A stretch of 64,000 nt of DNA, from the NCBI GenBank assembly GCA_011773785.1, contig WVWY01000026.1:40668-104667 (forward strand). The letters run 5' to 3'. Position numbers and translations under genes: made by a program. The stretch is from Candidatus Nitrosomaritimum khambatensis. GTDB taxonomy: Archaea > Thermoproteota > Nitrososphaeria > Nitrososphaerales > Nitrosopumilaceae. Shown here one piece after another: positions 20,767 through 46,388 of this stretch. The notes below the pieces were generated by a model. That model was not told where the DNA came from, made no database searches, and saw nothing but the letters and a program-made list of their open reading frames with translations. Positions within the stretch are counted from its first letter, which is position 1. Every line of letters starts with the position of its first letter.

Positions 20767-20876
20767 AGTATTTTCCTAATTCCTATTACCACGATAGCAG
20801 TAAAAAATCGGTTTGTGATATTAAGTTAGAGGGTAATAAAAAGGAGATAAGAGGTAATTCAAAAAATTTTGGAAGG

Positions 20877-21455
20877 CTACCAAAATCCTTTGATTCTTTT
20901 TACCATCTTATAGTCGTCATGTAGGATAAATGATACCATCAATCCCATCACAGTTCCGAAAAGCACATGGAGCCAAAGTCCATACCACAGTACAGTGTCT
21001 GAACCTACTAACAAAGAATACAATGCCTCAAGTTCTTCAACTGAAAGTCTATCCTGGTCTGTGATACTAAATTCTGCGACGATAGCAGGTGTCATAATCA
21101 AGTGGTTGATTGGGAGGAAAAATACGGTAAACACAATTAGACCTGTCACTGCTCCCATTAGAATTCCCTTTGGAGGAGTAATGACTTGGAAAGTTCTCCA
21201 TTTTGAAGCAGCCGCAGAATAAGTTGCTCCAATCAATGCAGCTGCTGACATGTGAGCCATAAATCCAATCGCTATTGCTTCGGCACCTTCAAGTCCCATT
21301 GGTATACCAACAGTCTTGTAAAATGTTCCATTTGGAATTCCTAGTTGTTGGTCGATAGCAAAGAATGAAGAAAATAAGGCACACCCAGCTACCAGCCCTG
21401 CAACGGCTCCTACCTTTGCTTTTCCTAATGTATGGTGTTGTTGCTGTTGCATCAT
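20877..21455 (-). CDS. Integral membrane protein (unknown), Gln/His-rich N-terminus
   Basis: Several TM segments; leaderless ATG behind regulon promoter. Confidence 0.65.
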   Translation of the reverse strand: MMQQQQHHTLGKAKVGAVAGLVAGCALFSSFFAIDQQLGIPNGTFYKTVGIPMGLEGAEAIAIGFMAHMSAAALIGATYSAAASKWRTFQVITPPKGILMGAVTGLIVFTVFFLPINHLIMTPAIVAEFSITDQDRLSVEELEALYSLLVGSDTVLWYGLWLHVLFGTVMGLMVSFILHDDYKMVKRIKGFW

Positions 21456-21475
21456 GGACCATGATGGGTTGTGAT

Positions 21476-21513
21476 TATATTTAATGGGGGCTAACTTTTT
21501 CTTCTAGTGCTAA
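21476..21513 (-). promoter_or_regulatory. Regulon promoter of membrane protein gene
   Basis: TTAGCACTAG, 27 bp to TTAAATATA. Confidence 0.75.
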
Positions 21514-21565
21514 TAAAAACAAAATTTTGTTAATAATGATTTGTTTGATAAAAAATAAAAAATGA

Positions 21566-22945
21566 TTAAATTGGTTTTCCTTTGTATTGGTAATCAATCA
21601 CTTTGTGAAAGAGATTATGAGAAGCAATTATACCTATTACGGTAAGTGCTATTCCCACAAAATTTCTTATTATGATTACGGTACTAGGATCTCCAGCAAT
21701 CAGAGACATTTGGAATGCCACATAGAAATTATCAAACAGCCAAAAAGCCATTGTGACCCACGTTAAGATTCCTGCCATCAAATAACCTAATCTTGTTTTG
21801 TTATAGACAAATAGAATAGAGAATCCAATTGTAAGATACCAAATCCCAGAGGCTAAAAGCCATAGAGGTTCATAAACTTCGGGTCTATTGTCCAACCAAT
21901 AATAGGTGCTTCCGCATATACCATAAGCAAATAGACTTACCAACAAAATTTTTTGGTTGATTTTGAAACCAGTTTTTTCTTCTCTTTTGTTCATTTTTGG
22001 TGGATTGGTATTGATTTCTTTAGTGGCAATTTCTATTGCCTCTCTAACGGATTTTAGTTTAATTGGAATTATTTTTTTGATATCGTTATTTCTTACCACA
22101 GTATCATGAACAAGACTATCAATTAGAGGTCTTGCTAAGGAAGCTTTTACAGGTGTAATTAGGTCTACCCAATAAGAGGACAATCTGGTTGTCAGAAATG
22201 GAATTTGAATAACAAAAAGATTTTTGTTCAAATAGGCCGAATAGTCTCTCATTAATTCTTCATAGGTCATTTTGTCTGGGCCTCCAATATCATAGATCTT
22301 GCCAGAAGTTTCTGGATGCTCAAAACAACCAACTAAATATTCCACAACATCATCCACAGCTATGGGTTGTGCTAATGATTTTACCCATGAAGGACATACC
22401 ATTACTCTTAATCTTTCTACAAGGTATCTCAACATTGCATAAGAACCTCCTTGAGCTCCGATAATTATCGAAGCTCGTAATTCAGTCACAGGAATAGAGC
22501 CTGATGATAAAATCTCACCTACTTGTTTTCGGCTTTGCATGTGTGGAGATAATTCATCACCCTCGTTAATCAAACCTCCAAGATAGATTATTCTTTTAAC
22601 TCCAGCTTTTGTAGCTGCGGAAAGAAAGTTTTTGGCTTGAACTTTTTCTCGAGATGCAAAATCTTCCCATTCTTCCTTGCTTCCCTCCATCGAATGCAGT
22701 AAATAGTAAGCTACATCTGTTCCCTCTAATGCAGTAGTAAGATTATCTACATCAAAAACATCTGCTTTTACAAATTTAACATAAGGCTGGTCTGGTATCT
22801 CTCTTCGGGACATTCCTTTTACTTTAATGCCCATACTCGCAAATTTCTCAACAAGTCTTGATCCAATAAATCCCGTTGCGCCAGTTACAATAATAGAGTA
22901 GGGCCGATTTTCGGCGACCACATCACTATCTGCCTTTTGAGACAT
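21566..22945 (-). CDS. SDR/NAD(P)-dependent epimerase-like protein with C-terminal TM domain
   Basis: IIVTGATGFIGSRLVEKF; C-terminal 4 TM. Confidence 0.85.
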   Translation of the reverse strand: MSQKADSDVVAENRPYSIIVTGATGFIGSRLVEKFASMGIKVKGMSRREIPDQPYVKFVKADVFDVDNLTTALEGTDVAYYLLHSMEGSKEEWEDFASREKVQAKNFLSAATKAGVKRIIYLGGLINEGDELSPHMQSRKQVGEILSSGSIPVTELRASIIIGAQGGSYAMLRYLVERLRVMVCPSWVKSLAQPIAVDDVVEYLVGCFEHPETSGKIYDIGGPDKMTYEELMRDYSAYLNKNLFVIQIPFLTTRLSSYWVDLITPVKASLARPLIDSLVHDTVVRNNDIKKIIPIKLKSVREAIEIATKEINTNPPKMNKREEKTGFKINQKILLVSLFAYGICGSTYYWLDNRPEVYEPLWLLASGIWYLTIGFSILFVYNKTRLGYLMAGILTWVTMAFWLFDNFYVAFQMSLIAGDPSTVIIIRNFVGIALTVIGIIASHNLFHKVIDYQYKGKPI

Positions 22946-22948
22946 TTA

Positions 22949-23158
22949 TTAGATTACACCTACTCTGGGAAGTTTCTCTAATTTCCTCTTGCGGTTTACC
23001 CTAAGACCTACCCCAACTGTTACCAATCCAACGAGGGTCCAGAAAGCACCACCCATTCCGTATGCAGAATGTAGAGTATAATCTAATTCTCCAGCAATGG
23101 CAAAAGATACTCCTAAGGCAGTAATTATTCCACCAGATATAACAATAGTTTTATCCAA
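22949..23158 (-). CDS. Two-TM small membrane protein; start revised to TTG at 23158
   Basis: GGAGGTGA SD directly upstream of TTGGATAAAACT. Confidence 0.6.
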   Translation of the reverse strand: MDKTIVISGGIITALGVSFAIAGELDYTLHSAYGMGGAFWTLVGLVTVGVGLRVNRKRKLEKLPRVGVI

Positions 23159-23246
23159 GGATTTCACCTCCCTTACTTCCAAATATAGTTCGGCATGCCA
23201 GAACAACTCCGGGATATTTGCATCTCAGATAAAATGAATTCTTCAT
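23151..23246 (-). CDS. 31-aa leaderless upstream ORF (MKNSFYLRCKYPGVVLACRTIFGSKGGEILG)
   Basis: ATG at predicted +1 of regulon promoter; stop overlaps the downstream TTG start. Confidence 0.4.
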   Translation of the reverse strand: MKNSFYLRCKYPGVVLACRTIFGSKGGEILG

Positions 23247-23267
23247 GGTGTGTTTTTTGTCGTTATT

Positions 23268-23305
23268 TTATTTAAAATGGTGCCAATATTTTTTACTAGT
23301 GGTAA
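23268..23305 (-). promoter_or_regulatory. Regulon promoter of leader ORF/SDR operon
   Basis: TTACCACTAG, 27 bp to TTTAAATAA. Confidence 0.7.
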
Positions 23306-23353
23306 ATAGAACAGTCATGAAATGATTTAATCAATGACAAAAAGGTAATATTT

Positions 23354-23390
23354 TTGGCACTAGATGGATAATTTGGCATTAAATATATAC
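23354..23390 (+). promoter_or_regulatory. Regulon promoter of CarH-like gene
   Basis: TTGGCACTAG-N11-GGCATTAAATATATA. Confidence 0.7.
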
Positions 23391-23414
23391 CATAGCAGGA
23401 TTAAAAATTTTAAA

Positions 23415-24257
23415 ATGGTATACATCAGGGCTAAAAAAATTAAAGGCGACCAATATCTCTACCTTGTTAAAAGTGTCTGGGACAAGCAAAAAAACACCTC
23501 AAGGCAAGAGATTGTCAAGTATCTTGGGAAGGCAGCTGATGTTCTGAAAGACGATATACCTCCTGATTACAGAAATGATCCAAAGATCATTTCATTTTTG
23601 GCATCCCACAATCCTGAGAATATGGCCAAAAAAGAGGAGGCCAGGAAAAAGACAAAAGAGCAGCTTTACAAAAAATTTACTCAAGGAGATATCAAGTCAT
23701 CTTTGAAAACTTATGAAGATTATGTAAAATTATTCAATTCTGCAGATTTTTTTGATAAAATTTTACGTCCAGTCATGTACTTGATTGGAGAGAATTGGGC
23801 CAATAACAAAATCAGTATAGCCACTGAACATGTAGCCTCTAATGTTGCCCAGGGACTTGTTAAAATTATAATGGATAGAAATCAGGGAGAATCAAATAAG
23901 AAAAAGATACTTGTTTGCGTTCCACAAGGAGAAGAACATAGGTTAGGATGCGATGTTCTAGAAACTTATCTCAGTTCAAAAGGATTCAAAGTTTACAATT
24001 TAGCAAATTCGGCTCCAAATGAATCTATTATCAGTTTTATTGAAACTGCAAAGCCAGACGTTGTTTTTGTCTCAATAACATTAGAGGACAACATAAAGCC
24101 TGGTCAAAGGCTGGTACGGAAAATCACAGAGGCATACCAAATTCCAATTTTTGTGGGAGGTTTTGCCTTACAATCTGAAAAAACCCCAAAATTTGAGGCT
24201 ACTGTTCTAAAAGACACATCCTTAGAACATTTACCCAGATTAATCAGAGCAGCATAG
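23415..24257 (+). CDS. CarH/LitR-like B12-binding regulator with non-MerR N-terminal domain
   Basis: GENWANNKISIATEHVAS (W-x9-EH), GEEHRLGCDVLETYLSSKGF (ExHxxG, B12-binding Rossmann); start revised to MVYIRAKK. Confidence 0.8.
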   Translation: MVYIRAKKIKGDQYLYLVKSVWDKQKNTSRQEIVKYLGKAADVLKDDIPPDYRNDPKIISFLASHNPENMAKKEEARKKTKEQLYKKFTQGDIKSSLKTYEDYVKLFNSADFFDKILRPVMYLIGENWANNKISIATEHVASNVAQGLVKIIMDRNQGESNKKKILVCVPQGEEHRLGCDVLETYLSSKGFKVYNLANSAPNESIISFIETAKPDVVFVSITLEDNIKPGQRLVRKITEAYQIPIFVGGFALQSEKTPKFEATVLKDTSLEHLPRLIRAA

Positions 24258-24258
24258 T

Positions 24259-25611
24259 CTAGTTAATAATTGGTTTTTGTTGTCTCAGGTATTCGAGTAT
24301 TTTTGGAAGACACAGAATTGAACTATGCGCAGCCGAATCGGTTCCGATTCCATAACTTACAGTAGAGTCCCCAACGAAGAAAAGACCATCTATTCCGTTT
24401 ACCTTGTGTGGCATTTTTGATTTCCATACTTTTCCTGGTTTCTTGACAACTGATTCCACCAGACTCCATCCCATTGGCCTTTCCCAAAGTAAGGAACTTT
24501 TGAAATCCGGATAGATTGCGTTTATTTCTTCTTTCATTTTTTCTACAGTTTCACGTATTTTTTGGGGGCTTTTCACATATTGTGGAGGTACAGGTGTTCC
24601 TGTAATTATCAAATGCTCCCCTTTAGGTGAAACTTTTGGAGTCATATTAGAAATGAAAAAAATTCCCTTTGCAGTATATTTTTCTCCAACAGGAAAAACA
24701 ACATGACGAGTATCTAATTTTTTAGATAAAGCAAAATGTACTTCAATAACGGCAGTGGTATCATTTAGATTATCAATTTTTTTTAAAAATTTTTGATCAA
24801 AAACTTCCTTATCAAATAACTGCTTAAGAGCTTGGTATGCAGGATATGAAATAACAATACAATTAGTCTCTATGAAATTACCTTTATTATCAATAAATCC
24901 AGTAACCTGGTTGTTTTCAATTAGGATTTTTTTTATGCTGCTATTAAGCAAAATTGAATTTCCTTTTGATTGAATGTAATTTGAAAGGATTTGAGAAATT
25001 TTATCATAACCTCCATCAGAAGGATATGCAAATTCGCTAGTACCGCCTTTGAATGGATTAGCCCTAATTATTGTTCTTGCAAATTCACCCAAGGAAATGT
25101 TTTTGGCGCTATCAGCAAATGCCAACATGCAAACTGCTTCAAAAAAGGCATTAGTTTTCTCATCTAAATTTTTGGTAATATCAACAAGAGAGGTGTCATC
25201 CCAAGATTCCGTTTTTTCAATCGATGAAAATGCAAGAGGTAAAAGAATTCTTAACAAAGCAAGCCTGCTTTTTAATGGAACCATAGACAATTTCAGAAGA
25301 TCTAGTATGCCCTTTGGATAGATATGAAAAGAATCGTCAGAATAAAATGCAATATCATCAACTCTACCTAGTTTTAATTGAGATTCGATTCCAATTTTCT
25401 TGAGAATTTGATAAATCGCTGATTGAGTGTAAAATGGCATAATATGAAACCCGTTATCTAAAATGTGATTTTTGTAGGTGATTGATGCAGTCCTTCCACC
25501 AACTTTACCATATTTTTCATATGTTGTGGTCCTAATACCCTCTTTTGCCAAGAGAGCAGCCATAGTTAAACCTCCTACACCTGCACCAATTATTGTGACA
25601 TTTTGTGTCAT
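24259..25611 (-). CDS. CrtI-like FAD-dependent phytoene desaturase/amine oxidase
   Basis: TIIGAGVGGLTMAALLAKEGIRTTTYEK; C-term GLFFVGDSTVSYGIGTDSA. Confidence 0.85.
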   Translation of the reverse strand: MTQNVTIIGAGVGGLTMAALLAKEGIRTTTYEKYGKVGGRTASITYKNHILDNGFHIMPFYTQSAIYQILKKIGIESQLKLGRVDDIAFYSDDSFHIYPKGILDLLKLSMVPLKSRLALLRILLPLAFSSIEKTESWDDTSLVDITKNLDEKTNAFFEAVCMLAFADSAKNISLGEFARTIIRANPFKGGTSEFAYPSDGGYDKISQILSNYIQSKGNSILLNSSIKKILIENNQVTGFIDNKGNFIETNCIVISYPAYQALKQLFDKEVFDQKFLKKIDNLNDTTAVIEVHFALSKKLDTRHVVFPVGEKYTAKGIFFISNMTPKVSPKGEHLIITGTPVPPQYVKSPQKIRETVEKMKEEINAIYPDFKSSLLWERPMGWSLVESVVKKPGKVWKSKMPHKVNGIDGLFFVGDSTVSYGIGTDSAAHSSILCLPKILEYLRQQKPIIN

Positions 25612-25631
25612 TGCTTGTTGATCTTTATTTT

Positions 25632-25670
25632 GATATTTATCTTGCTGGCATCATAATAATCTAGTGCTAA
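25632..25670 (-). promoter_or_regulatory. Regulon promoter of CrtI-like gene
   Basis: TTAGCACTAG, ~27 bp to GATAAATATC; leaderless. Confidence 0.75.
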
Positions 25671-25674
25671 TTTT

Positions 25675-26121
25675 TTATTTTTCTAAAATTTTCTCATGAA
25701 GCTCACACTGATAAATGAATTCATCCATTATTTTGTTGACTTGGTTTTTGACAAATTTTTGTAGTGGATAAAAAATCACGAAAATATTATTGAAAGAAAG
25801 ATTGACTTCTATTGTTATTGCAGTTCCTTTACTTGCTTTTTCATAATATTCAACAAAGGATGAACCTTTTAGGGGCCCAGATAAAATCCAAATTTTATGA
25901 ATGTTGGGCTTTTGTATATTATGTTTAGTTTGTATTTTTCTTCTTATTCTTAAGAAAGATAATTCCTCCTCTACTAAAAGTTCAGAGTTATTTGCCTGGG
26001 TAATTTTCAACGATTTGAAATATTTGGGAAACAATTTTGAAAAGTTTTCTAAATTGGTACTCAACTCGAATATTCTATCTCTATCTAGAGATGTCGTTCT
26101 ATGAAGTACAAATTTCAACAA
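25675..26121 (-). CDS. SRPBCC/coenzyme Q-binding-like protein
   Basis: HRTTSLDRDRIFELSTNLENFSKLFPKYFKSLKI. Confidence 0.7.
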   Translation of the reverse strand: MLKFVLHRTTSLDRDRIFELSTNLENFSKLFPKYFKSLKITQANNSELLVEEELSFLRIRRKIQTKHNIQKPNIHKIWILSGPLKGSSFVEYYEKASKGTAITIEVNLSFNNIFVIFYPLQKFVKNQVNKIMDEFIYQCELHEKILEK

Positions 26122-26480
26122 TGTATTGACATTCCTAAAAGATAGTCTTTAAGATTAGTTTTGCCAACAGGAATGTCGGGGTATAACTCTTTAATCGATT
26201 TGCATATCAATACCATTGCATTTTTTACTGAATCAGTTTTTTCCGGATCAGTCAATGGGAATAATCTTATTGTTGTTTTTGAATCACCAGACAATACTTC
26301 GATAAAGAATTCTTGATTAGTCTCATCAATGACAAGAGTAGAATAAAGGGCATTGTTTTTGGCTGAATTTAGATACATTTCTTTTACACGAATTATTGAG
26401 TCTGACTTCAAAAATATTGGTTGGAAGGCATCTTGAATCTTCAGGAGGTCAACCTTTCCGTTTAATACTATATGTGGCAT
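26115..26480 (-). CDS. Conserved hypothetical protein
   Basis: Overlapping-start operon member. Confidence 0.55.
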   Translation of the reverse strand: MPHIVLNGKVDLLKIQDAFQPIFLKSDSIIRVKEMYLNSAKNNALYSTLVIDETNQEFFIEVLSGDSKTTIRLFPLTDPEKTDSVKNAMVLICKSIKELYPDIPVGKTNLKDYLLGMSIHC

Positions 26481-26511
26481 GTTTTTTCGATGTTTTTTGA
26501 TACTCTGGTGC

Positions 26512-26691
26512 TCAAACCGTGAATAAACGTTCTTTGAATTCCTCTACGAACATGTAAAATTTACACCTCGCGCATGCCAGGAAATCTTTAGAGTTGCGTC
26601 CATTTGAAGCGGTAACCAATACTAATGCAGGTGACCTACACTTTGGGCAATCTGCCACCAAATCCCTTCGATTTGAATATTGAAGATTCAT
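26512..26691 (-). CDS. 59-aa zinc-ribbon protein (MNLQYSNRRDLVADCPKCRSPALVLVTASNGRNSKDFLACARCKFYMFVEEFKERLFTV)
   Basis: Own translation; CPKC/CARC; leaderless behind regulon promoter; absent from ORF track. Confidence 0.7.
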   Translation of the reverse strand: MNLQYSNRRDLVADCPKCRSPALVLVTASNGRNSKDFLACARCKFYMFVEEFKERLFTV

Positions 26692-26710
26692 ACTGTACTT
26701 GAGTGAATAT

Positions 26711-26748
26711 GATATTTAACTAATGCCAACCAAAATTGATAGTGCCAA
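26711..26748 (-). promoter_or_regulatory. Regulon promoter of zinc-ribbon/SRPBCC operon
   Basis: TTGGCACTAT-N11-GGCATTAG-TTAAATATC. Confidence 0.75.
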
Positions 26749-26841
26749 TTTTTTACCTTTATTCCAATACGATAAAAAATCCAATTTATCATGTATAATC
26801 TCATTGAAATCCTATTTAGATAATTAGTAAAAAATAATGTT

Positions 26842-27123
26842 ATGAGAAAAATTTTTGTTATTATTGTTGTAGCAATTCCAATTCTACTAGCATTAGTATT
26901 TGTTACAAATTCTGTTGCATCTAATACATTTCCCTTGATAATTACTTCGACCACCCAACAAGAAAAAATCCAACAAAACATACAACAAACCTATAACTCA
27001 AGTCTTCAATATTGCCAAGAAAAATACCAGGAAGGAAATTTTAAGGATCAAATGAATTATGAAGAATGCCTTGAAATTGTAGAGAGTTGGTACGTAGATA
27101 GTATTAAAAATTCTCAACCCTGA
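26842..27123 (+). CDS. Small secreted/membrane-anchored protein
   Basis: Signal-like N-terminus. Confidence 0.5.
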   Translation: MRKIFVIIVVAIPILLALVFVTNSVASNTFPLIITSTTQQEKIQQNIQQTYNSSLQYCQEKYQEGNFKDQMNYEECLEIVESWYVDSIKNSQP

Positions 27124-27170
27124 AACTAATTTCAAAATATAAGCAATTGAATAATAAATTTGATAGGTCG

Positions 27171-27716
27171 CTATTGAATGCGGAATTTCTGTCCTAAAGT
27201 TTTTCCCATTAATTGCAAAGCATATCTACACACATTTGGGGTTAGGGTGAAAAATCCTCTGAAATTTCCATCCTCATATTCCTCAGCAATTAAGCCAAAT
27301 GGCCCATAAGGTCCTCGAGTAATCACACTCCAAACATTTACCAGGTTTGTGTTCTTGCAGTTAATTACTTCAATTTTATCAGGAGTTTTGATTTGTGTTT
27401 TGCCATAATTTGCAATGACCCAAACTTTAGGTATATTTTCAATCATTTTTTGATATCTTTTTTCTACAAATTTGTAACGAGCTATTTCCTCGAAGGTAGC
27501 AAGAAGTGGCTCACCATTATCTTGTGCGTATTTTTCTATTAATTTGCTCAAATTGTAAAGAGGTTTCCTTTCAGAATGAAAATTATGATACCCTTTTTCA
27601 ATAAATTTATCTAACTTCCATAGTGGTAAGATAGAATTATCAAGATCATGCCATTCGGCAAGTTGAGGAAATTGTTCCCATACAGAGGCCACAAAACCAG
27701 AATATGGAGTTACCAT
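27171..27716 (-). CDS. DICT-like sensory domain protein, paralog of 41950..42537
   Basis: RKPLYNLSKLIEKYAQDNGEPLLATFEE...FVEKRYQKMIENIPKVWVIANYG. Confidence 0.6.
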   Translation of the reverse strand: MVTPYSGFVASVWEQFPQLAEWHDLDNSILPLWKLDKFIEKGYHNFHSERKPLYNLSKLIEKYAQDNGEPLLATFEEIARYKFVEKRYQKMIENIPKVWVIANYGKTQIKTPDKIEVINCKNTNLVNVWSVITRGPYGPFGLIAEEYEDGNFRGFFTLTPNVCRYALQLMGKTLGQKFRIQ

Positions 27717-27808
27717 AAAATCCTATTTTTACTATAAGATTTAAGTGAATCTTTTAGAATGTTCTTCATGTTACCGCACTGTTTTTATTCATTAAAAAAA
27801 TACATTAG

Positions 27809-28216
27809 ATGATGTCAAGATATGAAAAAGTTCTCAACATGGTAATGGATTTTAACAATTCCGTCAGACTAGCTGTAATAAGTAATACTGATGGAGAAAT
27901 TTTATGGAATGCAAAAAGGAAAGATGTTACTCTAAAAATACCACTAGCTGAAACAAAAAAAGCTTTGAAACGTGAAGCCTCAGATTGGGTCGAGAGATGC
28001 AAATTAGAAGACCGGAGCAATATTGGAAGAGCAATGTATAACATAACATCATTTGAAAAGATTAAGAGAGTCTCAGTTCCAATTGATGCCTTTCATCTAT
28101 TATTCATCAGCGTAGATAACGAACCAATCAAAAAAAGCAAAACCAAGAACTATGGTAGAATAGTAGAGATGGGTAAAATTATGTCTATTGTAGACTTCGT
28201 AAATAATTTTGAATGA
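27809..28216 (+). CDS. Conserved hypothetical (roadblock/PAS-like small domain)
   Basis: 135-aa ORF divergent from the DICT-like gene. Confidence 0.5.
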   Translation: MMSRYEKVLNMVMDFNNSVRLAVISNTDGEILWNAKRKDVTLKIPLAETKKALKREASDWVERCKLEDRSNIGRAMYNITSFEKIKRVSVPIDAFHLLFISVDNEPIKKSKTKNYGRIVEMGKIMSIVDFVNNFE

Positions 28217-28254
28217 TCATATTTTGAAAAATTTTCTAGATTTCGAATTTATGA

Positions 28255-28626
28255 TTAGATTAAATCACTTAACTTCTTGAGCTTTTTCAAATCAGTTATC
28301 TCGATGTCACTACTAAGGGTGACTATCTTTGCTAGTTTGGGTTTGGCCTCTTTGCCTAATTTCATTACTGGTGCCCCCTTTAATTGAATTTCAAAGGTGA
28401 TATTTTTTTTGCTAAGATCTTTTGCCAAGCTTTTGGCCTCAGTTAGTTGCTTAATCAAACCTGGTTTTTTATCCAATTTAATTGGAATATCAATAATGTC
28501 AAGTATTCTTCTATTGCCAATGGATTTAAAATTCATCGAGGGTTTTTTTCCTGTAGATATACTCAAACTTCCGTTTTCTAAGTAAGTCAAAAAATTGGCG
28601 GAGAGATTTTGATGTTTCATTCTCAT
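28255..28626 (-). CDS. Conserved hypothetical protein
   Basis: Operon with 28632..28817. Confidence 0.5.
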   Translation of the reverse strand: MRMKHQNLSANFLTYLENGSLSISTGKKPSMNFKSIGNRRILDIIDIPIKLDKKPGLIKQLTEAKSLAKDLSKKNITFEIQLKGAPVMKLGKEAKPKLAKIVTLSSDIEITDLKKLKKLSDLI

Positions 28627-28631
28627 CCAAC

Positions 28632-28817
28632 CTACTTTGCGGTTATAGTCAGCTTCCCTGTTAGAGAAACTGTTCCAGTGGGAACAACTTTGCCTGCTCT
28701 TTCCACCTTGCCTTTCATTTCAAGATTCTCAAAAGCATATGTGATGGATGCGTGCTTTGCTGTAAGCTTGTCAAATATTTCAGCAAGCAAATTAGCCCAT
28801 TCTTGTTCTTCTGCCAT
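28632..28817 (-). CDS. 61-aa conserved hypothetical protein
   Basis: Leaderless ATG behind regulon promoter. Confidence 0.6.
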   Translation of the reverse strand: MAEEQEWANLLAEIFDKLTAKHASITYAFENLEMKGKVERAGKVVPTGTVSLTGKLTITAK

Positions 28818-28836
28818 AGGGGCTTTTGGTGTTTAT

Positions 28837-28875
28837 GATATTTAACCTAGTGGTAAGCAAATTCCTAGTGCCCAA
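28837..28875 (-). promoter_or_regulatory. Regulon promoter of 28817 operon
   Basis: GGCACTAG-N10-ACCACTAG-G-TTAAATATC. Confidence 0.75.
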
Positions 28876-28926
28876 TTTCAGAGAAAAATAAAAAAGATTT
28901 ACATTATTTAAAACAGATTTTAGATT

Positions 28927-29298
28927 GTGGAAATACCCCCAGAGAAAAAATACATTGCATTGAAAACTTTTAAAAAAAATGGTGATGGAGTGGTAACTCC
29001 CGTTTGGTATGTAAAAGAAGAAAATTCGTTATGGGTAACAACTAGAAAAAAAACAGCAAAAGTCAAAAGAATAAGAAATAACAATAAAGTTCAAATTGCG
29101 ATTTCTGATTTTTCTGGAAATCCCAAAGGTCAGTGGTTTTATGGAATTGCAAAAATAGTGGAAGGAGATGTAGCCAAAAGAGCAATTAGATTGCGAAATA
29201 AAAAATATGGATTCATGTCAAAGGTTGTAAGTCTTTTTAGTTCTTCAAAAGGAGACTATGTTGTTTACCACATTGAAGATGAATTTCAAGATAAATAA
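28927..29298 (+). CDS. PPOX-class flavin/F420-dependent protein; GTG start
   Basis: TPVWYVKEENSLWVTTRKKTAKVKRIRNNNKVQIAISD. Confidence 0.75.
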   Translation: MEIPPEKKYIALKTFKKNGDGVVTPVWYVKEENSLWVTTRKKTAKVKRIRNNNKVQIAISDFSGNPKGQWFYGIAKIVEGDVAKRAIRLRNKKYGFMSKVVSLFSSSKGDYVVYHIEDEFQDK

Positions 29299-29446
29299 AA
29301 TAGAATTAAAATTGTTTAATTTTGTGTTTAACACTCTTTAAGGAAATCCCTTATATTTTGAAAATTTTTATACTGAATTTTCTAAAAGGTTTTCATTCAC
29401 AAAGTAAATTGTCTTTGTATAAATTTTGTAATGTCCTAATGTAATT

Positions 29447-30340
29447 ATGGTTCAAAGTAAAAAACAAAAAATCTGTGACCATTCGCTTTTGATTACAGAT
29501 TTCATCACTGGAGAAATTTCATGTAGTAAATGTGGTATAGTTCAATCTGAAAAAGTCATATCCTTTGGACCAGAGAATTTTGGGCTACAAAATGATGATT
29601 ACCAGGGAGCTGTTAGAACGGGTCAAAAAATTTCATTAAAAATGGCAGATATGGGGTTATCTACATTGATTGAATCCAAAGATAGAGACTCTTCGGGAAA
29701 ATCCCTCTCAATTGATAACAAAAGGGCTTTTCATCGTCTTAGAATGTGGGATAGGAATAGCCGGTTTTCCCTCCAAAACCAATCATATACAAACGCATTT
29801 ACTCTTCTTGATGCAATCAGATCAAAATTGGCACTACCCGATCATGTTGTTGAAAAAACAGCATATCTTTTTCGTAAAGCCTATCAAAAGAAGCTACTAC
29901 CCGGGAGATCAAATCATGTCATATTATGTGCATCTCTTTATCTGGCATGTAGAATTACCGAGACTCCAAGAACTTTATCTGATATTGCCCAAGCAGGCGG
30001 AGTAAAAAAGAAGACAATACAAAGAGGATATAGATTTCTTTCAAGGGAACTTGACACATATGCAAAATCGTATAATCCTTGTGAATTTGTTTCTAGGATT
30101 TCAAATGAAGTAAAAATATCTGAGCGTTCCAAAATTTACGCTAGAGAAATTCTGGAGATAGGAGTAGAAAAAGGAATAACGGAGGGAAAGCATCCAATGG
30201 CCATGGCAGCGGCAGCTGTTTACTTGGCCGTTCAAAAAAATAATGAAAACATAACACAAGCAAAAATATCTCTTGCTGCAGGTATAAGTGCCGTAACGAT
30301 AAGAAATAGAGTTAAGGAATTAATGGTGTTAGAAAATTAA
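29447..30340 (+). CDS. tfb: Transcription initiation factor IIB paralog 2 (TFB)
   Basis: Zinc ribbon + two cyclin folds, colinear with 16801..17703 product. Confidence 0.9.
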   Translation: MVQSKKQKICDHSLLITDFITGEISCSKCGIVQSEKVISFGPENFGLQNDDYQGAVRTGQKISLKMADMGLSTLIESKDRDSSGKSLSIDNKRAFHRLRMWDRNSRFSLQNQSYTNAFTLLDAIRSKLALPDHVVEKTAYLFRKAYQKKLLPGRSNHVILCASLYLACRITETPRTLSDIAQAGGVKKKTIQRGYRFLSRELDTYAKSYNPCEFVSRISNEVKISERSKIYAREILEIGVEKGITEGKHPMAMAAAAVYLAVQKNNENITQAKISLAAGISAVTIRNRVKELMVLEN

Positions 30341-30345
30341 TGAAA

Positions 30346-30383
30346 TTGGCACTAGCACCCATAATTATCACTAGTTAAATATC
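30346..30383 (+). promoter_or_regulatory. Regulon promoter of 30404 gene
   Basis: TTGGCACTAG-N11-ATCACTAG-TTAAATATC. Confidence 0.8.
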
Positions 30384-30403
30384 ACAATAGCATAATTACG
30401 GTC

Positions 30404-30787
30404 ATGACAGCACTAGTTGAAAAAGTCGTGATACAGCAGCCCAAGTTAGAACCATATTTTTATCAATTCTTTCAGGATGTTGTGAATACCATGCCAAAGG
30501 TGGATCCTGATCTTCTAATTAGAGTAATGATGTTTCAGGTTAACCTAAAAAAATATCCAGGACCAGATATTCCTCACGTAAATCTCTATGTGAGATACCG
30601 AGAAGGCGTAGATCTTCACCAAAAGCAAGAAGAGGGTCGTGACACGTACCCATTTGAAGTAACCACAAGCAGGTGGGGAGATGGAGTGATCTTTTCAGGT
30701 TTGATGAGTATTGGGACTGTTGAATCTGTATGTTCAGACCCCGATATCGTAAAGGTGACAGGCGAGGCTAAGCCTACACATAACTAG
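30404..30787 (+). CDS. Conserved ~125-aa protein of unknown function, paralog of 41547..41909
   Basis: GPDIPHVNLYV.Y.EG.DLH.KQEEGRD.YP.EVT.SRWGDGVIFSGLM shared with paralog. Confidence 0.7.
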   Translation: MTALVEKVVIQQPKLEPYFYQFFQDVVNTMPKVDPDLLIRVMMFQVNLKKYPGPDIPHVNLYVRYREGVDLHQKQEEGRDTYPFEVTTSRWGDGVIFSGLMSIGTVESVCSDPDIVKVTGEAKPTHN

Positions 30788-30797
30788 AATCAAAAGT

Positions 30798-30836
30798 TTG
30801 GCACTAGGGGTAGTTTTTACCCCTCCATTATATTTT
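30798..30836 (+). promoter_or_regulatory. Regulon promoter of 30864 gene
   Basis: TTGGCACTAG, 27 bp to ATTATATTTT. Confidence 0.65.
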
Positions 30837-30863
30837 GTGAATTCCTATATACATTGAGGTAAA

Positions 30864-31184
30864 ATGCAAAAACCAGTATACACTCAATCAAAGTCCCCAA
30901 CGATTAAGATTATGGCCTTAATAGCTGGAGGACTTGCTGTGGTTCTGCTTTTTACAATAACACCATGGAATTTGGTTCCAACAGAAGTAACAGAAGACGT
31001 AACAGTCTTGGCAATTACAAAACACGGTTGTGTTGGCGAATCAAAACTAGGTGTAAGTGTGATAGTCCCAGAATGCACAGCAAAAGTAGGCGAAGTGGTT
31101 TCAGCCACATTCAAAGTTCCTGCGATGGAAGTCAATGGATTCTATGACAAAATTCAAGGGAAATTAATAATGGTTGAACCATGA
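30864..31184 (+). CDS. Small membrane-anchored protein (cupredoxin-like possible)
   Basis: N-terminal TM, 106 aa; behind regulon promoter. Confidence 0.55.
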   Translation: MQKPVYTQSKSPTIKIMALIAGGLAVVLLFTITPWNLVPTEVTEDVTVLAITKHGCVGESKLGVSVIVPECTAKVGEVVSATFKVPAMEVNGFYDKIQGKLIMVEP

Positions 31185-31190
31185 ATTTTT

Positions 31191-32555
31191 TTATTTTATT
31201 TCTTTAAAAATTTCTTTTGATTTTTGCGCCTCTATTTTGTGATCTACTATTGGTTTAGGATAGTTAAGATTTGAAGGGAAATTTTTCCATAAATTATGAA
31301 TGACAATTGGAGTTAAGGATTCCAGTTTTGGAATCCATTTTTTTATATACAAACAATCTTTGTCAAATTTCTCTTGCTGTAACCAGGGATTAAAGATTCT
31401 GAAATAGGGGACAGAGTCACAACCTGTAGATGCAGCCCATTGCCAATTTCCGGAATTCACAGCAGGATCATAATCTACTAATTTTTGGGCAAAATACTTC
31501 TCACCTAATTTCCAGTAAATATGAAGATCCTTAGTCAGAAACGATGCCACAATCATTCTGACACGGTTATGCATGAAACCTGTGTGATTTAATTCCTCCA
31601 TGCCTGCATCGACTATTGGAAAGCCAGTTTTGGCATTACACCATGCCTCAAATTTGACCTTAGAACGAGACCATGAAATTTTTTGATATTTTTTCTTAAA
31701 TGACTTTTGTGTAGCAAAAGGAAAATGAAAAGAAATATGATTGAAAAATTCTCTCCAATAAATTTCGCCCATCAGAGTATGATGGGTTCCTAATTTTGAG
31801 AGGATGTAATCGTACGCTTCCCTAATTGAAACTGTTCCAAATCTCAAATGAGAAGATAATCTTGTAGTGAGGGTTATTGGGTAATCTCTTGTTTTGTCAT
31901 AATCTTTGAAGTTATCTAGATTTTTTAGAATTTTTAATCCATTTGAGCGCCCCCCAGGAAATTCAGATTCAACGTTGGGAACTGAAATGGAAAAATCGGA
32001 GATTTTTTCTCTATTAAAATTATTTTTTAATTTCCTTTGGGATTTTCTGACAGGAAATATCCTGGCTTTTTTATAAAATTGAGAATAAATGGTGTAAGGA
32101 TTATTGAGATTTGTTTTAATCTCATTAGGGTTATGTAGTAAAAAGTCCAGGGTACTTGATAGATGTATTTTCAATTCTAAGCACAGTTTATGAATTTCCA
32201 TATCTCGTTTTTTTGAGTAAAATGAAAAATCAGTATTCATGAAAATAGAATCTATATTATGTTCTTCGACGATTTTTTGGATTATTTTTTTGGGGTTTCC
32301 TTTAAAAATTTGTAAAGAGGTTTTTTGGCTTTTTAATTGTTCATTCAAATCTAAAAGAGATTCATTAAGAAAGTTCCATCGAAATTGTGAATCTTTAAAA
32401 TGCTTCAAAAAAAAATCATCATAAATAAAAATTGGAATCACTGTCTTTGAATTTTCAAGTGCTCGGAATAATCCAGTATTGTCCTCTAGGCGTAAGTCAC
32501 GCCTAAAAACAAAAAGAGATTTTTCAAATTTACTGTTTTTTGCATTTCCTGACAA
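31191..32555 (-). CDS. phr: DNA photolyase / cryptochrome family
   Basis: LFVFRRDLRLEDNTGLFRAL; GFMHNRVRMIVASFLTKDL...DYDPAVNSGNWQWAASTG. Confidence 0.95.
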   Translation of the reverse strand: MSGNAKNSKFEKSLFVFRRDLRLEDNTGLFRALENSKTVIPIFIYDDFFLKHFKDSQFRWNFLNESLLDLNEQLKSQKTSLQIFKGNPKKIIQKIVEEHNIDSIFMNTDFSFYSKKRDMEIHKLCLELKIHLSSTLDFLLHNPNEIKTNLNNPYTIYSQFYKKARIFPVRKSQRKLKNNFNREKISDFSISVPNVESEFPGGRSNGLKILKNLDNFKDYDKTRDYPITLTTRLSSHLRFGTVSIREAYDYILSKLGTHHTLMGEIYWREFFNHISFHFPFATQKSFKKKYQKISWSRSKVKFEAWCNAKTGFPIVDAGMEELNHTGFMHNRVRMIVASFLTKDLHIYWKLGEKYFAQKLVDYDPAVNSGNWQWAASTGCDSVPYFRIFNPWLQQEKFDKDCLYIKKWIPKLESLTPIVIHNLWKNFPSNLNYPKPIVDHKIEAQKSKEIFKEIK

Positions 32556-41949: not shown

Positions 41950-42537
41950 TTAGTTTTGTCCTTTGTTAGATAAATCAATATTTACTCCCATAATTTGATT
42001 CATCTTTTCAATCACCTTATCGATTACTTCAGCCTTTGTTGTGAAAAATCCTCTAAACCAATCTCCTTTTTCAACACCACCCAGGTCTTCTGCAACCAAA
42101 CCAAAGGGACCATCTGGACCATTTGAGGCAACAATCCACATATCTTCAAGATTTGTACCTGCGCAAGTAAGAATTTCAGCTTTTTCTGGAGGAGTTGTTG
42201 GTGCAAAGAATGGGTTGTCAAATCCACCAATTACCCAAGTTTTTGGAATATTATTCATCAAATCAAGATAACGTTTCTCCACGTATTTGTAGAGGTGTTC
42301 AGTTTCAAATACAGCCACTAGAGGCTCATATGCCTTTGCTGCATATTTTTCTATCATAATGCTTAGTCTGTAAAGGTCACGGCGTTTTACCTTATCATAC
42401 CGGATAAATTCTGCTATCATGTGATCATTTAGGGTAGCAAATTTTTCTTTGTCGGTGATATCTACTAATTCTTCTTTTGCAAGATCAGGGAACTGGGCCC
42501 AAATTCCATCTAAAAATTTTTCATTAACGTTTTCCAT
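41950..42537 (-). CDS. DICT-like sensory domain protein, paralog of 27171..27716
   Basis: RRDLYRLSIMIEKYAAKAYEPLVAVFETEHLYKYVEKRYLDLMNNIPKTWVIGGF. Confidence 0.6.
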   Translation of the reverse strand: MENVNEKFLDGIWAQFPDLAKEELVDITDKEKFATLNDHMIAEFIRYDKVKRRDLYRLSIMIEKYAAKAYEPLVAVFETEHLYKYVEKRYLDLMNNIPKTWVIGGFDNPFFAPTTPPEKAEILTCAGTNLEDMWIVASNGPDGPFGLVAEDLGGVEKGDWFRGFFTTKAEVIDKVIEKMNQIMGVNIDLSNKGQN

Positions 42538-42543
42538 GGTTTA

Positions 42544-42879
42544 TCAAAAGTTGTCACTATATTTTACATTTGTGGGCTGTTTTTCAACTATTTTTCTTGT
42601 TAAGATAGTTGCAACATTTACTGCCACATGTTGTGACGCCATGCTGATTTTATCATTAAGGAAATCTTTTTCAATTTGATTTAGGGTTGGTTTGAAAATT
42701 CTCTCAAAAAACTCTAACTTATCAAAATTTTGAGAATACTCGTGATATGTTCTGAGGGCCGAATTTATTTCTCCCTTCGTGAAATCGTCATATAATTTAA
42801 TTTTCCATTCATCGTCCAATGCAGAACTAAATGGCGATTCAATTGATTCATTTGATTTTGTTTTTAGTTCGTATGGCAT
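42544..42879 (-). CDS. Stand-alone B12-binding-type helical-bundle domain protein
   Basis: EKDFLNDKISMASQHVAVNVA aligns with W-x9-EH bundle of 23415..24257. Confidence 0.65.
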   Translation of the reverse strand: MPYELKTKSNESIESPFSSALDDEWKIKLYDDFTKGEINSALRTYHEYSQNFDKLEFFERIFKPTLNQIEKDFLNDKISMASQHVAVNVATILTRKIVEKQPTNVKYSDNF

Positions 42880-42880
42880 T

Positions 42881-43744
42881 TTATTTCACCCAAATTCTAG
42901 GAATTTTTTCTGTTCTAGTTAATTTCGATATTTTTTCAAGAGAGAGGTCTTGTACCACATCAACCTCCCATGAGAGAGTTTTTGTCTTTGTTGCTTGACC
43001 CCCAACAAAGATTGGTTTTTTGTAATTTTCCCGGATATTTTCTACAAGTCGTTTAGCAGATGAGATGTTCTCCTCCAGAGATACGGATATGAAAACAAGG
43101 TCTGGGCTTTTTTCTCTAATTTCTTCTAATATAGATACAGTTGATGTATAGGCAGGTAGATTCCAAATCGTGTTTCCTTTGGATAAAAGAAAGGACTCTA
43201 TAACTTTAGAACCTAATGCATGCTGTTCACCATAGGGCAAACAAATGAGGATTTTTTTCTTTTTTGTGTCTTGATCATTTTTTTGATTGATTTTATCTAT
43301 GAGACTTTGTGCGGTGTTGTAAGAGATTATTTGTTGCCCTAGTTTGTTTTGTAATTTGTAATTAGATTGTTCAATTTGATCTATTGTGGGTCGAAAAACC
43401 TTTTCTAAAAATTCTTTAGAACCATACACTTTTTCAAATGAGTCATACAAAGAAAATGCCCCAATATCATCGCCTTCTCTGAAGGACAAAAGTAAATCAT
43501 TTTTGCATTTGTTTATAGCATCATCATGTTTGTTTGGATCAAAATATTTTAGATTTGAAAAGAAATCAGTAATTTTTTTGGAATTTCTGTAGTCTTTAGG
43601 AATGTCTTCTATTGTTACTGATGACTTTTTTCCAAGATACTTCACAATTTTTTGTTTCGAAGTTTTTCTTTCTGAATCCCAGTCACTTTTTACTAAATAG
43701 AGATATTGCTCACCTTTTACTGCTTTAATTCTTAGGTATGCCAT
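42881..43744 (-). CDS. CarH-like paralog: same N-domain + degenerate bundle + B12-binding Rossmann domain
   Basis: MAYLRIKAVKGEQYLYLVKSDW...; LPYGEQHALGSKVIESFLLSKG. Confidence 0.75.
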   Translation of the reverse strand: MAYLRIKAVKGEQYLYLVKSDWDSERKTSKQKIVKYLGKKSSVTIEDIPKDYRNSKKITDFFSNLKYFDPNKHDDAINKCKNDLLLSFREGDDIGAFSLYDSFEKVYGSKEFLEKVFRPTIDQIEQSNYKLQNKLGQQIISYNTAQSLIDKINQKNDQDTKKKKILICLPYGEQHALGSKVIESFLLSKGNTIWNLPAYTSTVSILEEIREKSPDLVFISVSLEENISSAKRLVENIRENYKKPIFVGGQATKTKTLSWEVDVVQDLSLEKISKLTRTEKIPRIWVK

Positions 43745-43939: not shown

Positions 43940-44215
43940 ATGAAAGATAAGCGATCGAAATTGCAAATTTATTACGAAATTATGATGGCAATTAACCAAG
44001 ATAAACTTGAAAATGAAAAGATATCCAAAACCAGGATTCAGCAAAAATGTAATACTTCCTATGACAAGCTACTCAAATACTTGGAGGAAATGGAACAAAA
44101 AGGGCTAATTCAGATGAATCATGATATAGAAATCACTCAAAGAGGGCAGAAATTTTTCAATGACTATGCAAGAGTGAACAATTTGATAGAAGAAATTACC
44201 AGTAGACTAGTCTAA
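43940..44215 (+). CDS. Archaeal winged-helix regulator
   Basis: KTRIQQKCNTSYDKLLKYLEEMEQKGLIQM. Confidence 0.75.
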   Translation: MKDKRSKLQIYYEIMMAINQDKLENEKISKTRIQQKCNTSYDKLLKYLEEMEQKGLIQMNHDIEITQRGQKFFNDYARVNNLIEEITSRLV

Positions 44216-44772
44216 GGAAAATCGAATTTTTCCACTTTATCGTCCTTTGTAAGAACTAAAACAGAGTGGTGAGAATCCAATAGATTTTTCATGAAATTTC
44301 CAGCCAAATCTTTGCTTACAGATGGAACATGAAATGAGCAAATAAAGTTACCAGGAATTTTTTCAAAGTTATCATCAACCCATTGTTCTATTTTTTCCAT
44401 GGACTCAGTTTTCTTGTCTGAATTAAAATCAAAGTAATGTGTTGAGACGACCCTTATTGGTTCATTTTTGGGCAAAGATGCCACCTTTTCCTCTATCATT
44501 TTGGAATATTCGTCAAACGTTTTTGGAATTGGTATGATGTTTAGCAAGTTATTTTCAATTTTATTATCTACTGGAATCCCAAATTCTTCCAATCTTTCCT
44601 TTAATGATTCAGGTTCATTGGTAGTGTAAAAACATCTTTGATTTTTGTCTAATCCAGATTTAATAAAATTAAACTCTATCTTTTCGGCATTTTTTTGATC
44701 CTCATGAAAAAGCAGGATATGAGTATGATTAAGAGATTCTAGATATTCATGACTTATTTCAGAAAAACTCAT
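44212..44772 (-). CDS. MEDS-domain (DcmR-like sensory) protein
   Basis: HILLFHEDQKNAEKIEFNFIKSGLDKNQRCFYTTNEPESLKERLEEFGI. Confidence 0.7.
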   Translation of the reverse strand: MSFSEISHEYLESLNHTHILLFHEDQKNAEKIEFNFIKSGLDKNQRCFYTTNEPESLKERLEEFGIPVDNKIENNLLNIIPIPKTFDEYSKMIEEKVASLPKNEPIRVVSTHYFDFNSDKKTESMEKIEQWVDDNFEKIPGNFICSFHVPSVSKDLAGNFMKNLLDSHHSVLVLTKDDKVEKFDFP

Positions 44773-44821
44773 GCTATTCTTTTTTTTGGGAAAAACAACC
44801 GTAATAAGCTTTAACTTAACT

Positions 44822-44860
44822 TTGGCACTAGTGGCAAAGGTTTCCCTTGTTTTTATTTTA
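44822..44860 (+). promoter_or_regulatory. Regulon promoter of WrbA-like gene
   Basis: TTGGCACTAGTGGCAA, 27 bp to TTTTATTTTA; ATG at +1. Confidence 0.6.
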
Positions 44861-44878
44861 AAAAAATCAAAAAAAAAT

Positions 44879-45499
44879 ATGAAAAGTGAACCTGCAGTAT
44901 TAATTATATTTTACACTAGGCGCGGAAACACCGCAAAGATGGCCGAAGCAGTAGCTCAAGGAGCAAAACAAGAAGGAGCAACCATCAAGTTAATGAGAAT
45001 TGCAGATGATGTTCCAATAGATATTGTAAAAAAAGATCAAATCTGGTTTGAAAAACATCAAGAATTAGAAAAACAATATCCAACATCAGATGAGTTTACA
45101 ATCATTGAAGAGATGTCAAAGGCAGATGCAATAATTTTTGGTTCACCAACAAGATTTGGTAATATGGCACATGAAATGAAAAAGATGTGGGATCTTAGCA
45201 CGGATCTTTGGTTTACAGGAAAACTAATTGGTAAGGTAGGAGGAGTTTTTACTGGGGCATCAAGTGTTCATGGGGGTCAAGAAACAACTGCTCTTTCAAT
45301 GATGTTCCCAATGCTTCATCAAGGAATGATAATTGTTGGACCATCATATGATACCAAAGAACTTCATGAAAGCGGAAGTCCATATGGTCCAAGTACTATA
45401 GTTGGTGCAAATAGTGACCAAATAAAAGAGGTGGACCTAGTTGTGGCAAGAGCACTTGGTTCAAAAATTGCAAAAATAACTAGTAAATTATCTGATTAA
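44879..45499 (+). CDS. WrbA/flavodoxin-like NAD(P)H:quinone oxidoreductase
   Basis: IIFYTRRGNTAKMAEAVAQGA; GSPTRFGNMAHEMKKMWD; start revised to ATG 44879. Confidence 0.9.
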   Translation: MKSEPAVLIIFYTRRGNTAKMAEAVAQGAKQEGATIKLMRIADDVPIDIVKKDQIWFEKHQELEKQYPTSDEFTIIEEMSKADAIIFGSPTRFGNMAHEMKKMWDLSTDLWFTGKLIGKVGGVFTGASSVHGGQETTALSMMFPMLHQGMIIVGPSYDTKELHESGSPYGPSTIVGANSDQIKEVDLVVARALGSKIAKITSKLSD

Positions 45500-45500
45500 A

Positions 45501-46388
45501 ATGAAAATTGGCTATGCGTGTCAGAACCTTGAACTACGTGCAAATACCAACAATACGTTTCGGTTAGCCTCATATTCGGATCCTAAAATTATTCAAACGA
45601 TTGAAAAAAACTTTGAAGAGTTTAATAAAATTCTAGATTTTAATATCAAAAACAAATTACTTTTTTTTCGTCTTGGTTCAAGTTTCATACCATTTGCCTC
45701 ACATCCTATTTGTAAATTTGATTGGGAAGAATATTTTCAAGATTATTTTGTCAATCTAAGTAATACAATAAAAAAAAATAAAATTCGTATTTCTATGCAT
45801 CCAGGACAATTTGTTGTTTTAAATTCCAAAAAAGAAAACGTTGTTTCATCAAGCATTAGAGAGTTAGAATATCACTCAAGGTTACTTGATTTGTTAAAAT
45901 TAGACGAGTCTGCAAAAATCCAAATCCATGTGGGGTTTCCTCAAGGAGATAAAGAAAAGGCAAAAACAGATTTTATAAAAAATTTTGATAAATTATCAAA
46001 ATCTGTCAAAAAAAGATTAGTTATTGAAAATGATGAGCATTATTTTGGAGTAAATGATTGTCTTGAGATTCACAATTCAATAAAAATCCCGATATTATTT
46101 GATACATTTCATTACTCCATCCTCAATGAAGGCAAACCCATTCAAGATATTTTTGACATAATATCAAAAACATGGCAAAATAAAGATGGGTTACCTATGG
46201 TAGACTATAGCTCCCAGGACAAAAATGGAAGAAAAGGTAAACATTGTCCTACAATCGATTTAGGAGATTTTCAAAATATCATCACTAAATTATTTCACTA
46301 TAATTTTGATTTGATGTTAGAGATTAAAGATAAGGAAAACAGCGCTCTTCAGGCAAACAAACTGATAGCAAATACTATTACAATTTGA
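45501..46388 (+). CDS. uvsE: UV-damage endonuclease (UvsE/UvdE family)
   Basis: MKIGYACQNLEL, FRLGSSFIPFASH, ISMHPGQFVVLNS, LVIENDEHYF. Confidence 0.9.
   Translation: MKIGYACQNLELRANTNNTFRLASYSDPKIIQTIEKNFEEFNKILDFNIKNKLLFFRLGSSFIPFASHPICKFDWEEYFQDYFVNLSNTIKKNKIRISMHPGQFVVLNSKKENVVSSSIRELEYHSRLLDLLKLDESAKIQIHVGFPQGDKEKAKTDFIKNFDKLSKSVKKRLVIENDEHYFGVNDCLEIHNSIKIPILFDTFHYSILNEGKPIQDIFDIISKTWQNKDGLPMVDYSSQDKNGRKGKHCPTIDLGDFQNIITKLFHYNFDLMLEIKDKENSALQANKLIANTITI

What the first reader, a model, noticed from the sequence alone, without database searches (positions are those of the whole stretch)
42544..43744. Possible split B12 sensor with complementary degeneration
The 42881 product keeps the N-domain and Rossmann domain (GEQHALG) but its helical bundle has lost W-x9-EH (region reads SNYKLQNKLGQQII). 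The adjacent 42544 gene encodes only a bundle, retaining F-LNDKISMAS-QH, i.e. F-x9-QH. The pair may form a heteromer in which the small protein supplies the cofactor cap.
Basis: inference. Interest (0 to 1): 0.7.

Follow-up and report, generated by a model that had tools for sequence, protein, structure and literature searches.

The report
Archaeal B12 sensor paralogue plus cap
In an ammonia-oxidising archaeon, a vitamin-B12 light-sensor-like protein that has lost its usual cofactor lid sits directly beside a tiny gene encoding only such a lid; the pair is real and kept in a related species, but the two do not rebuild the classic lid and most relatives of the big protein do without the small one.

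Summary
The large protein (42881-43744, -) keeps the lower cobalamin motif (GEQHALG, SxS, GG) but lacks Wx9EH. The small gene (42544-42879, -), 1 nt downstream, encodes only a CarH-type four-helix cap with F-x9-QH.

Comparison changes the reading. A canonical paralogue (FL) with the CarH signature lies in the same window (23415-24257, +). The large protein belongs to a separate clade ("LG", 16 of 250 Nitrosopumilaceae genomes) that lost Wx9EH, like CarA beside CarH. Fourteen LG genomes (Nitrosopumilus) have no stand-alone cap anywhere and carry a fixed Gly/Gln/Thr replacement pocket, so LG works without the small protein. LG's constant neighbour is instead a winged-helix + MEDS cassette.

Stand-alone caps form one clade derived from FL-type caps, not from a split LG gene. 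They occur next to LG only in the window and one congener, and without LG in two other genomes. Trp, the GxxW Gly and Glu are lost from both partners, so they do not restore Wx9EH. LG's own bundle is predicted in the cap position.

Best reading: a CarA-like archaeal regulator with a recently recruited, selected cap-like accessory. A trans-capping heteromer is possible but not favoured.

The parts
42881..43744 (-). Large protein (LG clade): N-terminal beta domain, degenerate four-helix bundle, B12-binding Rossmann domain
43277..43528 (-). Four-helix bundle of the large protein (residues 73-156), predicted in the CarH cap position
43328..43363 (-). Site of the lost Wx9EH in the large protein (N128, Q138, I139)
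43211..43231 (-). GEQHALG, lower axial His (ExHxxG) motif
42544..42879 (-). Small protein: stand-alone CarH-type four-helix cap, 111 aa
42628..42663 (-). F73-x9-Q83H84 in the small protein, at the Wx9EH position
41950..42537 (-). DICT-like protein, third gene of the apparent operon (6 nt after the small gene); paralogue of 27171-27716 (BLAST E 1e-35), whose Pfam DICT match is below cut-off
43940..44215 (+). HTH_45 winged-helix protein, divergent from the large gene; constant LG neighbour
44212..44772 (-). MEDS-domain sensory protein; constant LG neighbour
23415..24257 (+). Canonical paralogue (FL) with GxxW / EH / ExHxxG (Wx9EH at 23796-23831)
24259..25611 (-). FAD amine-oxidase / phytoene-desaturase-like protein beside FL (39 of 66 FL loci)
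31191..32555 (-). DNA photolyase; homologues also lie near FL (12 of 66) and LG (4 of 14) in other genomes

Best explanation
The large protein is a CarA-like paralogue of an archaeal CarH-type cobalamin sensor. Duplication and long divergence removed the adenosyl-capping residues (Wx9EH) but kept the lower His-on site, so it probably binds cobalamin, if at all, in a form other than AdoCbl. It probably signals through its divergently encoded winged-helix (HTH_45) and MEDS partners in a light/UV-stress response. The small protein is a cap module copied once from a canonical sensor and recruited beside the large gene in this genus. It is co-translated with the large protein and kept by selection, most likely as an accessory subunit that binds the large protein (or the intact paralogue) through the bundle surfaces CarH uses to oligomerise, modulating it rather than restoring a photoactive AdoCbl pocket. 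Shown here: homology, motif states, clades, gene order, selection, predicted folds. Inferred: co-translation, cobalamin binding, light role, protein contacts.
For: LG is one clade (100/99) and stand-alone caps another (95/89) nested in FL caps. FL has W, E, H, lower H and P in 48 of 48; Nitrosopumilus LG has fixed G, Q, T in 14 of 14 with the lower H kept: a replaced pocket, not decay. The HTH_45/MEDS cassette flanks LG in every locus with enough upstream sequence (MEDS 12 of 12, HTH 11 of 11, plus the window); 14 of 16 LG genomes have MEDS, and in the other two LG lies at a contig end. In 10 g19 genomes (Nitrosopelagicus, judging by names) MEDS also sits about 0.5 kb from the canonical protein (coordinates). 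FL and LG loci carry photolyase and DICT-like genes, and FL's SDR / FAD oxidoreductase / photolyase set resembles the Pseudomonas LitR light regulon (PMC9758184). The pair is conserved in a second species with overlapping genes and dN below dS. CarA beside CarH is the direct precedent for losing an intact Wx9EH while keeping ExHxxG (PMC9304148, PMC8156234).
Against: No binding, light or interaction data. The small protein's partner is inferred from gene order alone. HTH_45 and MEDS roles are inferred from adjacency. The stand-alone cap clade rests on 73 columns with long branches. Only two genomes carry the pair, and the window genome is an incomplete assembly (89%).
Confidence: 0.5

Rival explanations
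1. Split sensor: the small protein docks on the large protein's Rossmann domain as a trans-acting cap, its Phe and His closing the upper face, giving a heteromeric cobalamin sensor.
For: Adjacent and selected in both genomes of the genus that have LG; small protein has a CarH-type cap fold; F-x9-QH kept in both species; the two LG proteins with a partner have also lost the Pro of GxxxP that all 14 partnerless LG keep.
Against: W, the GxxW Gly and E are lost in both proteins of the window pair; 14 of 16 LG genomes lack any stand-alone cap; LG's own bundle is modelled in the cap position; stand-alone caps also occur without LG, with motif L-x9-EY or F-x9-YH.
Confidence: 0.2
2. The small protein acts on the intact paralogue FL: as a copy of FL's own cap it competes for or joins FL's head-to-tail oligomer, working as a modulator or anti-repressor.
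For: Stand-alone caps derive from FL caps; all four genomes with a stand-alone cap also have FL, only two have LG.
Against: In both genomes with LG the cap gene is in an apparent operon with LG, not FL; co-occurrence with FL is expected from its origin.
Confidence: 0.2
3. The small gene is a partial duplicate of no function that happens to lie beside LG.
For: Rare (4 of 250 genomes), fast evolving (about 41-43% identity where FL is 78%); G146 holds what looks like a truncated second copy.
Against: Open frame and adjacency kept in two species; dN/dS about 0.24; predicted fold intact.
Confidence: 0.1

Closest known systems
CarA of Myxococcus xanthus (B12-independent paralogue of CarH)
   Same: Paralogue of a cobalamin photosensor that lost an intact Wx9EH but keeps the ExHxxG B12 motif, coexisting with the intact form (PMC9304148, PMC8156234).
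   Different: CarA keeps the EH and has a MerR DNA-binding domain; LG has lost W, E and H, has a different N-terminal domain with no Pfam match, and lies by a separate winged-helix gene.
CarH / LitR class I AdoCbl photoreceptors
   Same: FL paralogue has W, EH and lower His at the CarH positions; LG and the small protein match CarH folds.
   Different: No MerR domain; LG and the small protein each lack the defining Wx9EH.
Class II LitR (Pseudomonas PplR / PmlR)
   Same: Light regulators with only a B12-binding_2 four-helix bundle left, in light regulons with photolyase, SDR and FAD oxidoreductase genes, working with a neighbouring photosensor (PMC9758184).
   Different: Their bundle is fused to a MerR DNA-binding domain; the small protein here is the bundle alone.
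Photocobilins (8j2w, 8j2y)
   Same: Closest structures of the large model (Z 21-23, about 207 residues).
   Different: They carry a bilin domain and an intact AdoCbl signature.
AerR / AppA SCHIC
   Same: Cobalamin-fold regulators acting by protein contacts rather than own DNA binding; structural matches Z 15-16.
   Different: Bacterial, act on CrtJ/PpsR; no stand-alone cap partner.

Membership tests
CarH-type AdoCbl photoreceptor (large protein) | Wx9EH cap motif (presence with the B12 motif defines CarH, PMC8156234) | tested here: not met
   N128, Q138, I139
CarH-type AdoCbl photoreceptor (large protein) | ExHxxG ... SxT/V ... GG lower-face B12 motif | tested here: met
   GEQHALG, SVS, GG; PF02310 40.4 bits over cut-off 32.1
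CarH-type AdoCbl photoreceptor (large protein) | Light-response signature GxxW / EH / GxxH / GxxxP (PMC11796333) | tested here: not met
   only GxxH kept
CarA-like paralogue (large protein) | B12 motif kept, Wx9EH not intact, intact paralogue in the same genome | tested here: met
CarA-like paralogue (large protein) | MerR DNA-binding domain | tested here: not met
   N-terminal domain is beta-stranded with no Pfam match; so it is CarA-like in its cobalamin domain only, not a CarA
CarH-type AdoCbl photoreceptor (FL, 23415-24257) | Wx9EH plus ExHxxG | tested here: met
   48 of 48 aligned members have W, E, H and lower His; alignment to CarH structures
CarH-type AdoCbl photoreceptor (FL) | AdoCbl binding and photolysis | not testable with these tools
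   needs purified protein
B12-binding_2 cap domain (small protein) | Pfam PF02607 score over curated cut-off | tested here: not met
   12.7 bits versus 23
B12-binding_2 cap domain (small protein) | Four-helix CarH-type cap fold and homology to a bona fide cap | tested here: met
   FL cap E=3e-16 (FL itself scores 35.9 bits); VIA Z 11-14 to CarH-type caps
Split cobalamin sensor (two-chain cap + Rossmann) | Capping residues supplied by the second chain | tested here: inconclusive
   His and Phe present, Trp, Gly and Glu absent
Split cobalamin sensor (two-chain cap + Rossmann) | The two genes occur together across relatives | tested here: not met
   2 of 16 LG genomes; 2 of 4 stand-alone caps lack LG
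Split cobalamin sensor (two-chain cap + Rossmann) | Physical complex | not testable with these tools
   no complex prediction offered

The most novel reading that the evidence does not exclude
A two-chain cobalamin sensor in an archaeon: the small protein caps the large protein's cobalamin in trans with Phe/Gln/His (a non-CarH pocket), possibly displacing the large protein's own bundle, so that cap release, with light or another upper-ligand change, becomes dissociation of a heteromer.
Probability: 0.18. Interest if true: 0.75.

Novelty: new variant of a known kind. Interest (0 to 1): 0.48.

Why it matters
Nitrosopumilaceae include the dominant ammonia oxidisers of the sea, and photoinhibition of ammonia oxidation is well documented (PMC9239080), but I know of no described light sensor in them. 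This locus points to a CarH-type family there, with a canonical form set among photolyase and other LitR-regulon-like genes, and a CarA-like paralogue tied to a winged-helix/MEDS cassette. The stand-alone cap is a natural case of a cofactor lid becoming a separate gene, useful for learning what the cap does for oligomerisation as against cofactor chemistry.

Tried and rejected
1. LG split into two genes in the window: rejected; LG keeps a full-length bundle and the cap derives from FL.
2. LG bundle simply decaying: rejected for Nitrosopumilus, where G/Q/T at the three positions are fixed in 14 of 14 and the surrounding GTQTTCYN is conserved.
3. Relaxed constraint on the bundle where a small partner exists: domain identities of the window/G007 pair (N 75, bundle 53, Rossmann 65%) are not clearly outside those of other pairs.
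4. Chance co-occurrence of LG and the cap: hypergeometric P about 0.02, not corrected for relatedness, so weak; adjacency is the better evidence.
5. Conserved palindromic operator between LG and its divergent neighbour: only short, mostly A+T-rich inverted repeats that differ between genomes.
6. N-terminal domain: no Pfam match and not covered in the fold searches; identity left open.
8. The FL row used a wrong reading frame and is void; FL identity (78%) is.

Full report
Setting. The window lies in a Nitrosopumilaceae genome (42 contigs, 89% complete). The large gene (42881-43744, -) is followed after 1 nt by the small gene (42544-42879, -) and after 6 nt more by a DICT-like gene (41950-42537, -), an apparent three-gene operon. 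Divergent from it lie a winged-helix HTH_45 gene (43940-44215, +) and, convergent with that, a MEDS-domain gene (44212-44772, -).

Observation. The large protein has a Pfam B12-binding Rossmann domain above cut-off and no recognisable cap domain; the small protein is a sub-threshold B12-binding_2 match but clearly homologous to the cap of a canonical relative (E=3e-16). It passes both Pfam cut-offs and aligns to CarH, CtMerR and photocobilin structures with W and EH in register. The motif reading given in the finding is correct.

Family comparison. In 250 genomes of the family, FL-type proteins are widespread and the large protein's clade (LG) occurs in 16 genomes (alignments). At the upper-pocket sites FL reads G, W, E, H in 48 of 48. 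Nitrosopumilus LG reads G (for W), Q, T in 14 of 14; the two LG of the window's genus read N/Q, Q, I/T. The lower His is kept in all, and the Pro of GxxxP in all but the two LG with a small partner. So LG is a conserved alternative pocket rather than wreckage, and it parallels CarA, which keeps the B12 motif without an intact Wx9EH (PMC9304148, PMC8156234).

The small protein. A profile search finds stand-alone caps only in the window, in G007 (same genus; isolate S2bin1), and in two other genomes without LG, G146 and G162; G146 also has what looks like a truncated second copy. In the cap tree they form one clade (95/89) inside FL caps, apart from LG (100/99); the tree has only 73 columns and long branches. 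Hence the small gene most likely arose from a canonical cap, not from splitting LG. All four have lost Trp (F, F, F, L) and the GxxW Gly, and His is kept in three. In the window pair, of 29 FL-conserved cap columns the small keeps 19, LG keeps 10 and all of those are shared; Trp, Gly and Glu are missing from both. The pair is therefore not complementary in the sense proposed. The small gene is nevertheless real: adjacent or overlapping in two species, with dN 0.46 and dS 1.93 (dS near saturation).

Structures. The small protein is predicted as four helices (mean pLDDT 79); its best matches are CarH-type caps at Z 11-14, above MetH-type caps at 8-10 and unrelated folds at about 7. The large protein (pLDDT 85) superposes bundle plus Rossmann on photocobilin (207 residues, 2.0 A, Z 22.8) and CarH (Z 17-18): its own bundle sits where a cap sits. 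The model used FL sequences in its alignment, which could favour the closed form.

Genomic context. MEDS neighbours LG in 12 of 12 loci with enough upstream sequence and HTH_45 in 11 of 11, with the cassette inverted in the window's genus. Genome-wide, 14 of 16 LG genomes have MEDS; in the other two LG lies at a contig end. In ten g19 genomes MEDS lies about 0.5 kb from the canonical protein (coordinates). FL neighbours recur: an SDR (52 of 66), 2-thiouracil desulfurase/DUF1722 (49), TFB (40), FAD amine oxidase (39), an SRPBCC-like protein (38), DICT-like (13), photolyase (12). Four LG loci also carry photolyase, and five DICT-like genes. The photolyase, SDR and FAD oxidoreductase set resembles the Pseudomonas LitR light regulon (PMC9758184), and MEDS and DICT appear among domains linked with light-responsive cobalamin domains (PMC11796333). 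A light/UV role is thus likely but inferred.

Conclusion. I favour a CarA-like archaeal regulator working with HTH_45/MEDS, with the cap gene a recent accessory in one genus. A trans-capping heteromer remains possible at about one in five, and action on the intact paralogue is about as likely.

Noticed in passing
window 23415-24257 and neighbours 19801-32555: A canonical archaeal CarH-like protein sits in an island with an SDR, 2-thiouracil desulfurase/DUF1722, FAD amine oxidase, SRPBCC-like, DICT-like, TFB and photolyase genes, resembling bacterial LitR light regulons; conserved across many Nitrosopumilaceae.
   Followed up: partly
window 43940-44772; L113 versus L114-L126: The HTH_45/MEDS convergent cassette beside LG is inverted between the window's genus and Nitrosopumilus while staying adjacent.
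   Followed up: partly
window 43571-43744 and 23415-23588: N-terminal beta domain (YLYLVKS..W...YLG) of FL and LG, highly conserved, without Pfam match; possible output or nucleic-acid-binding domain.
   Followed up: partly
L082 5185-5713; L083 732-1149: In G146 two contigs each carry a stand-alone cap (one apparently truncated) next to a DUF1059-like small protein.
   Followed up: no
L081 1188-4744: In G162 the stand-alone cap gene overlaps the end of a DUF523/DUF1722-type gene, near an FMN reductase-like gene and a photolyase-related gene (identified by eye).
   Followed up: no
window 44771-46388: FMN reductase and UvdE UV-endonuclease genes follow the MEDS gene, adding UV-repair context to the locus.
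   Followed up: partly
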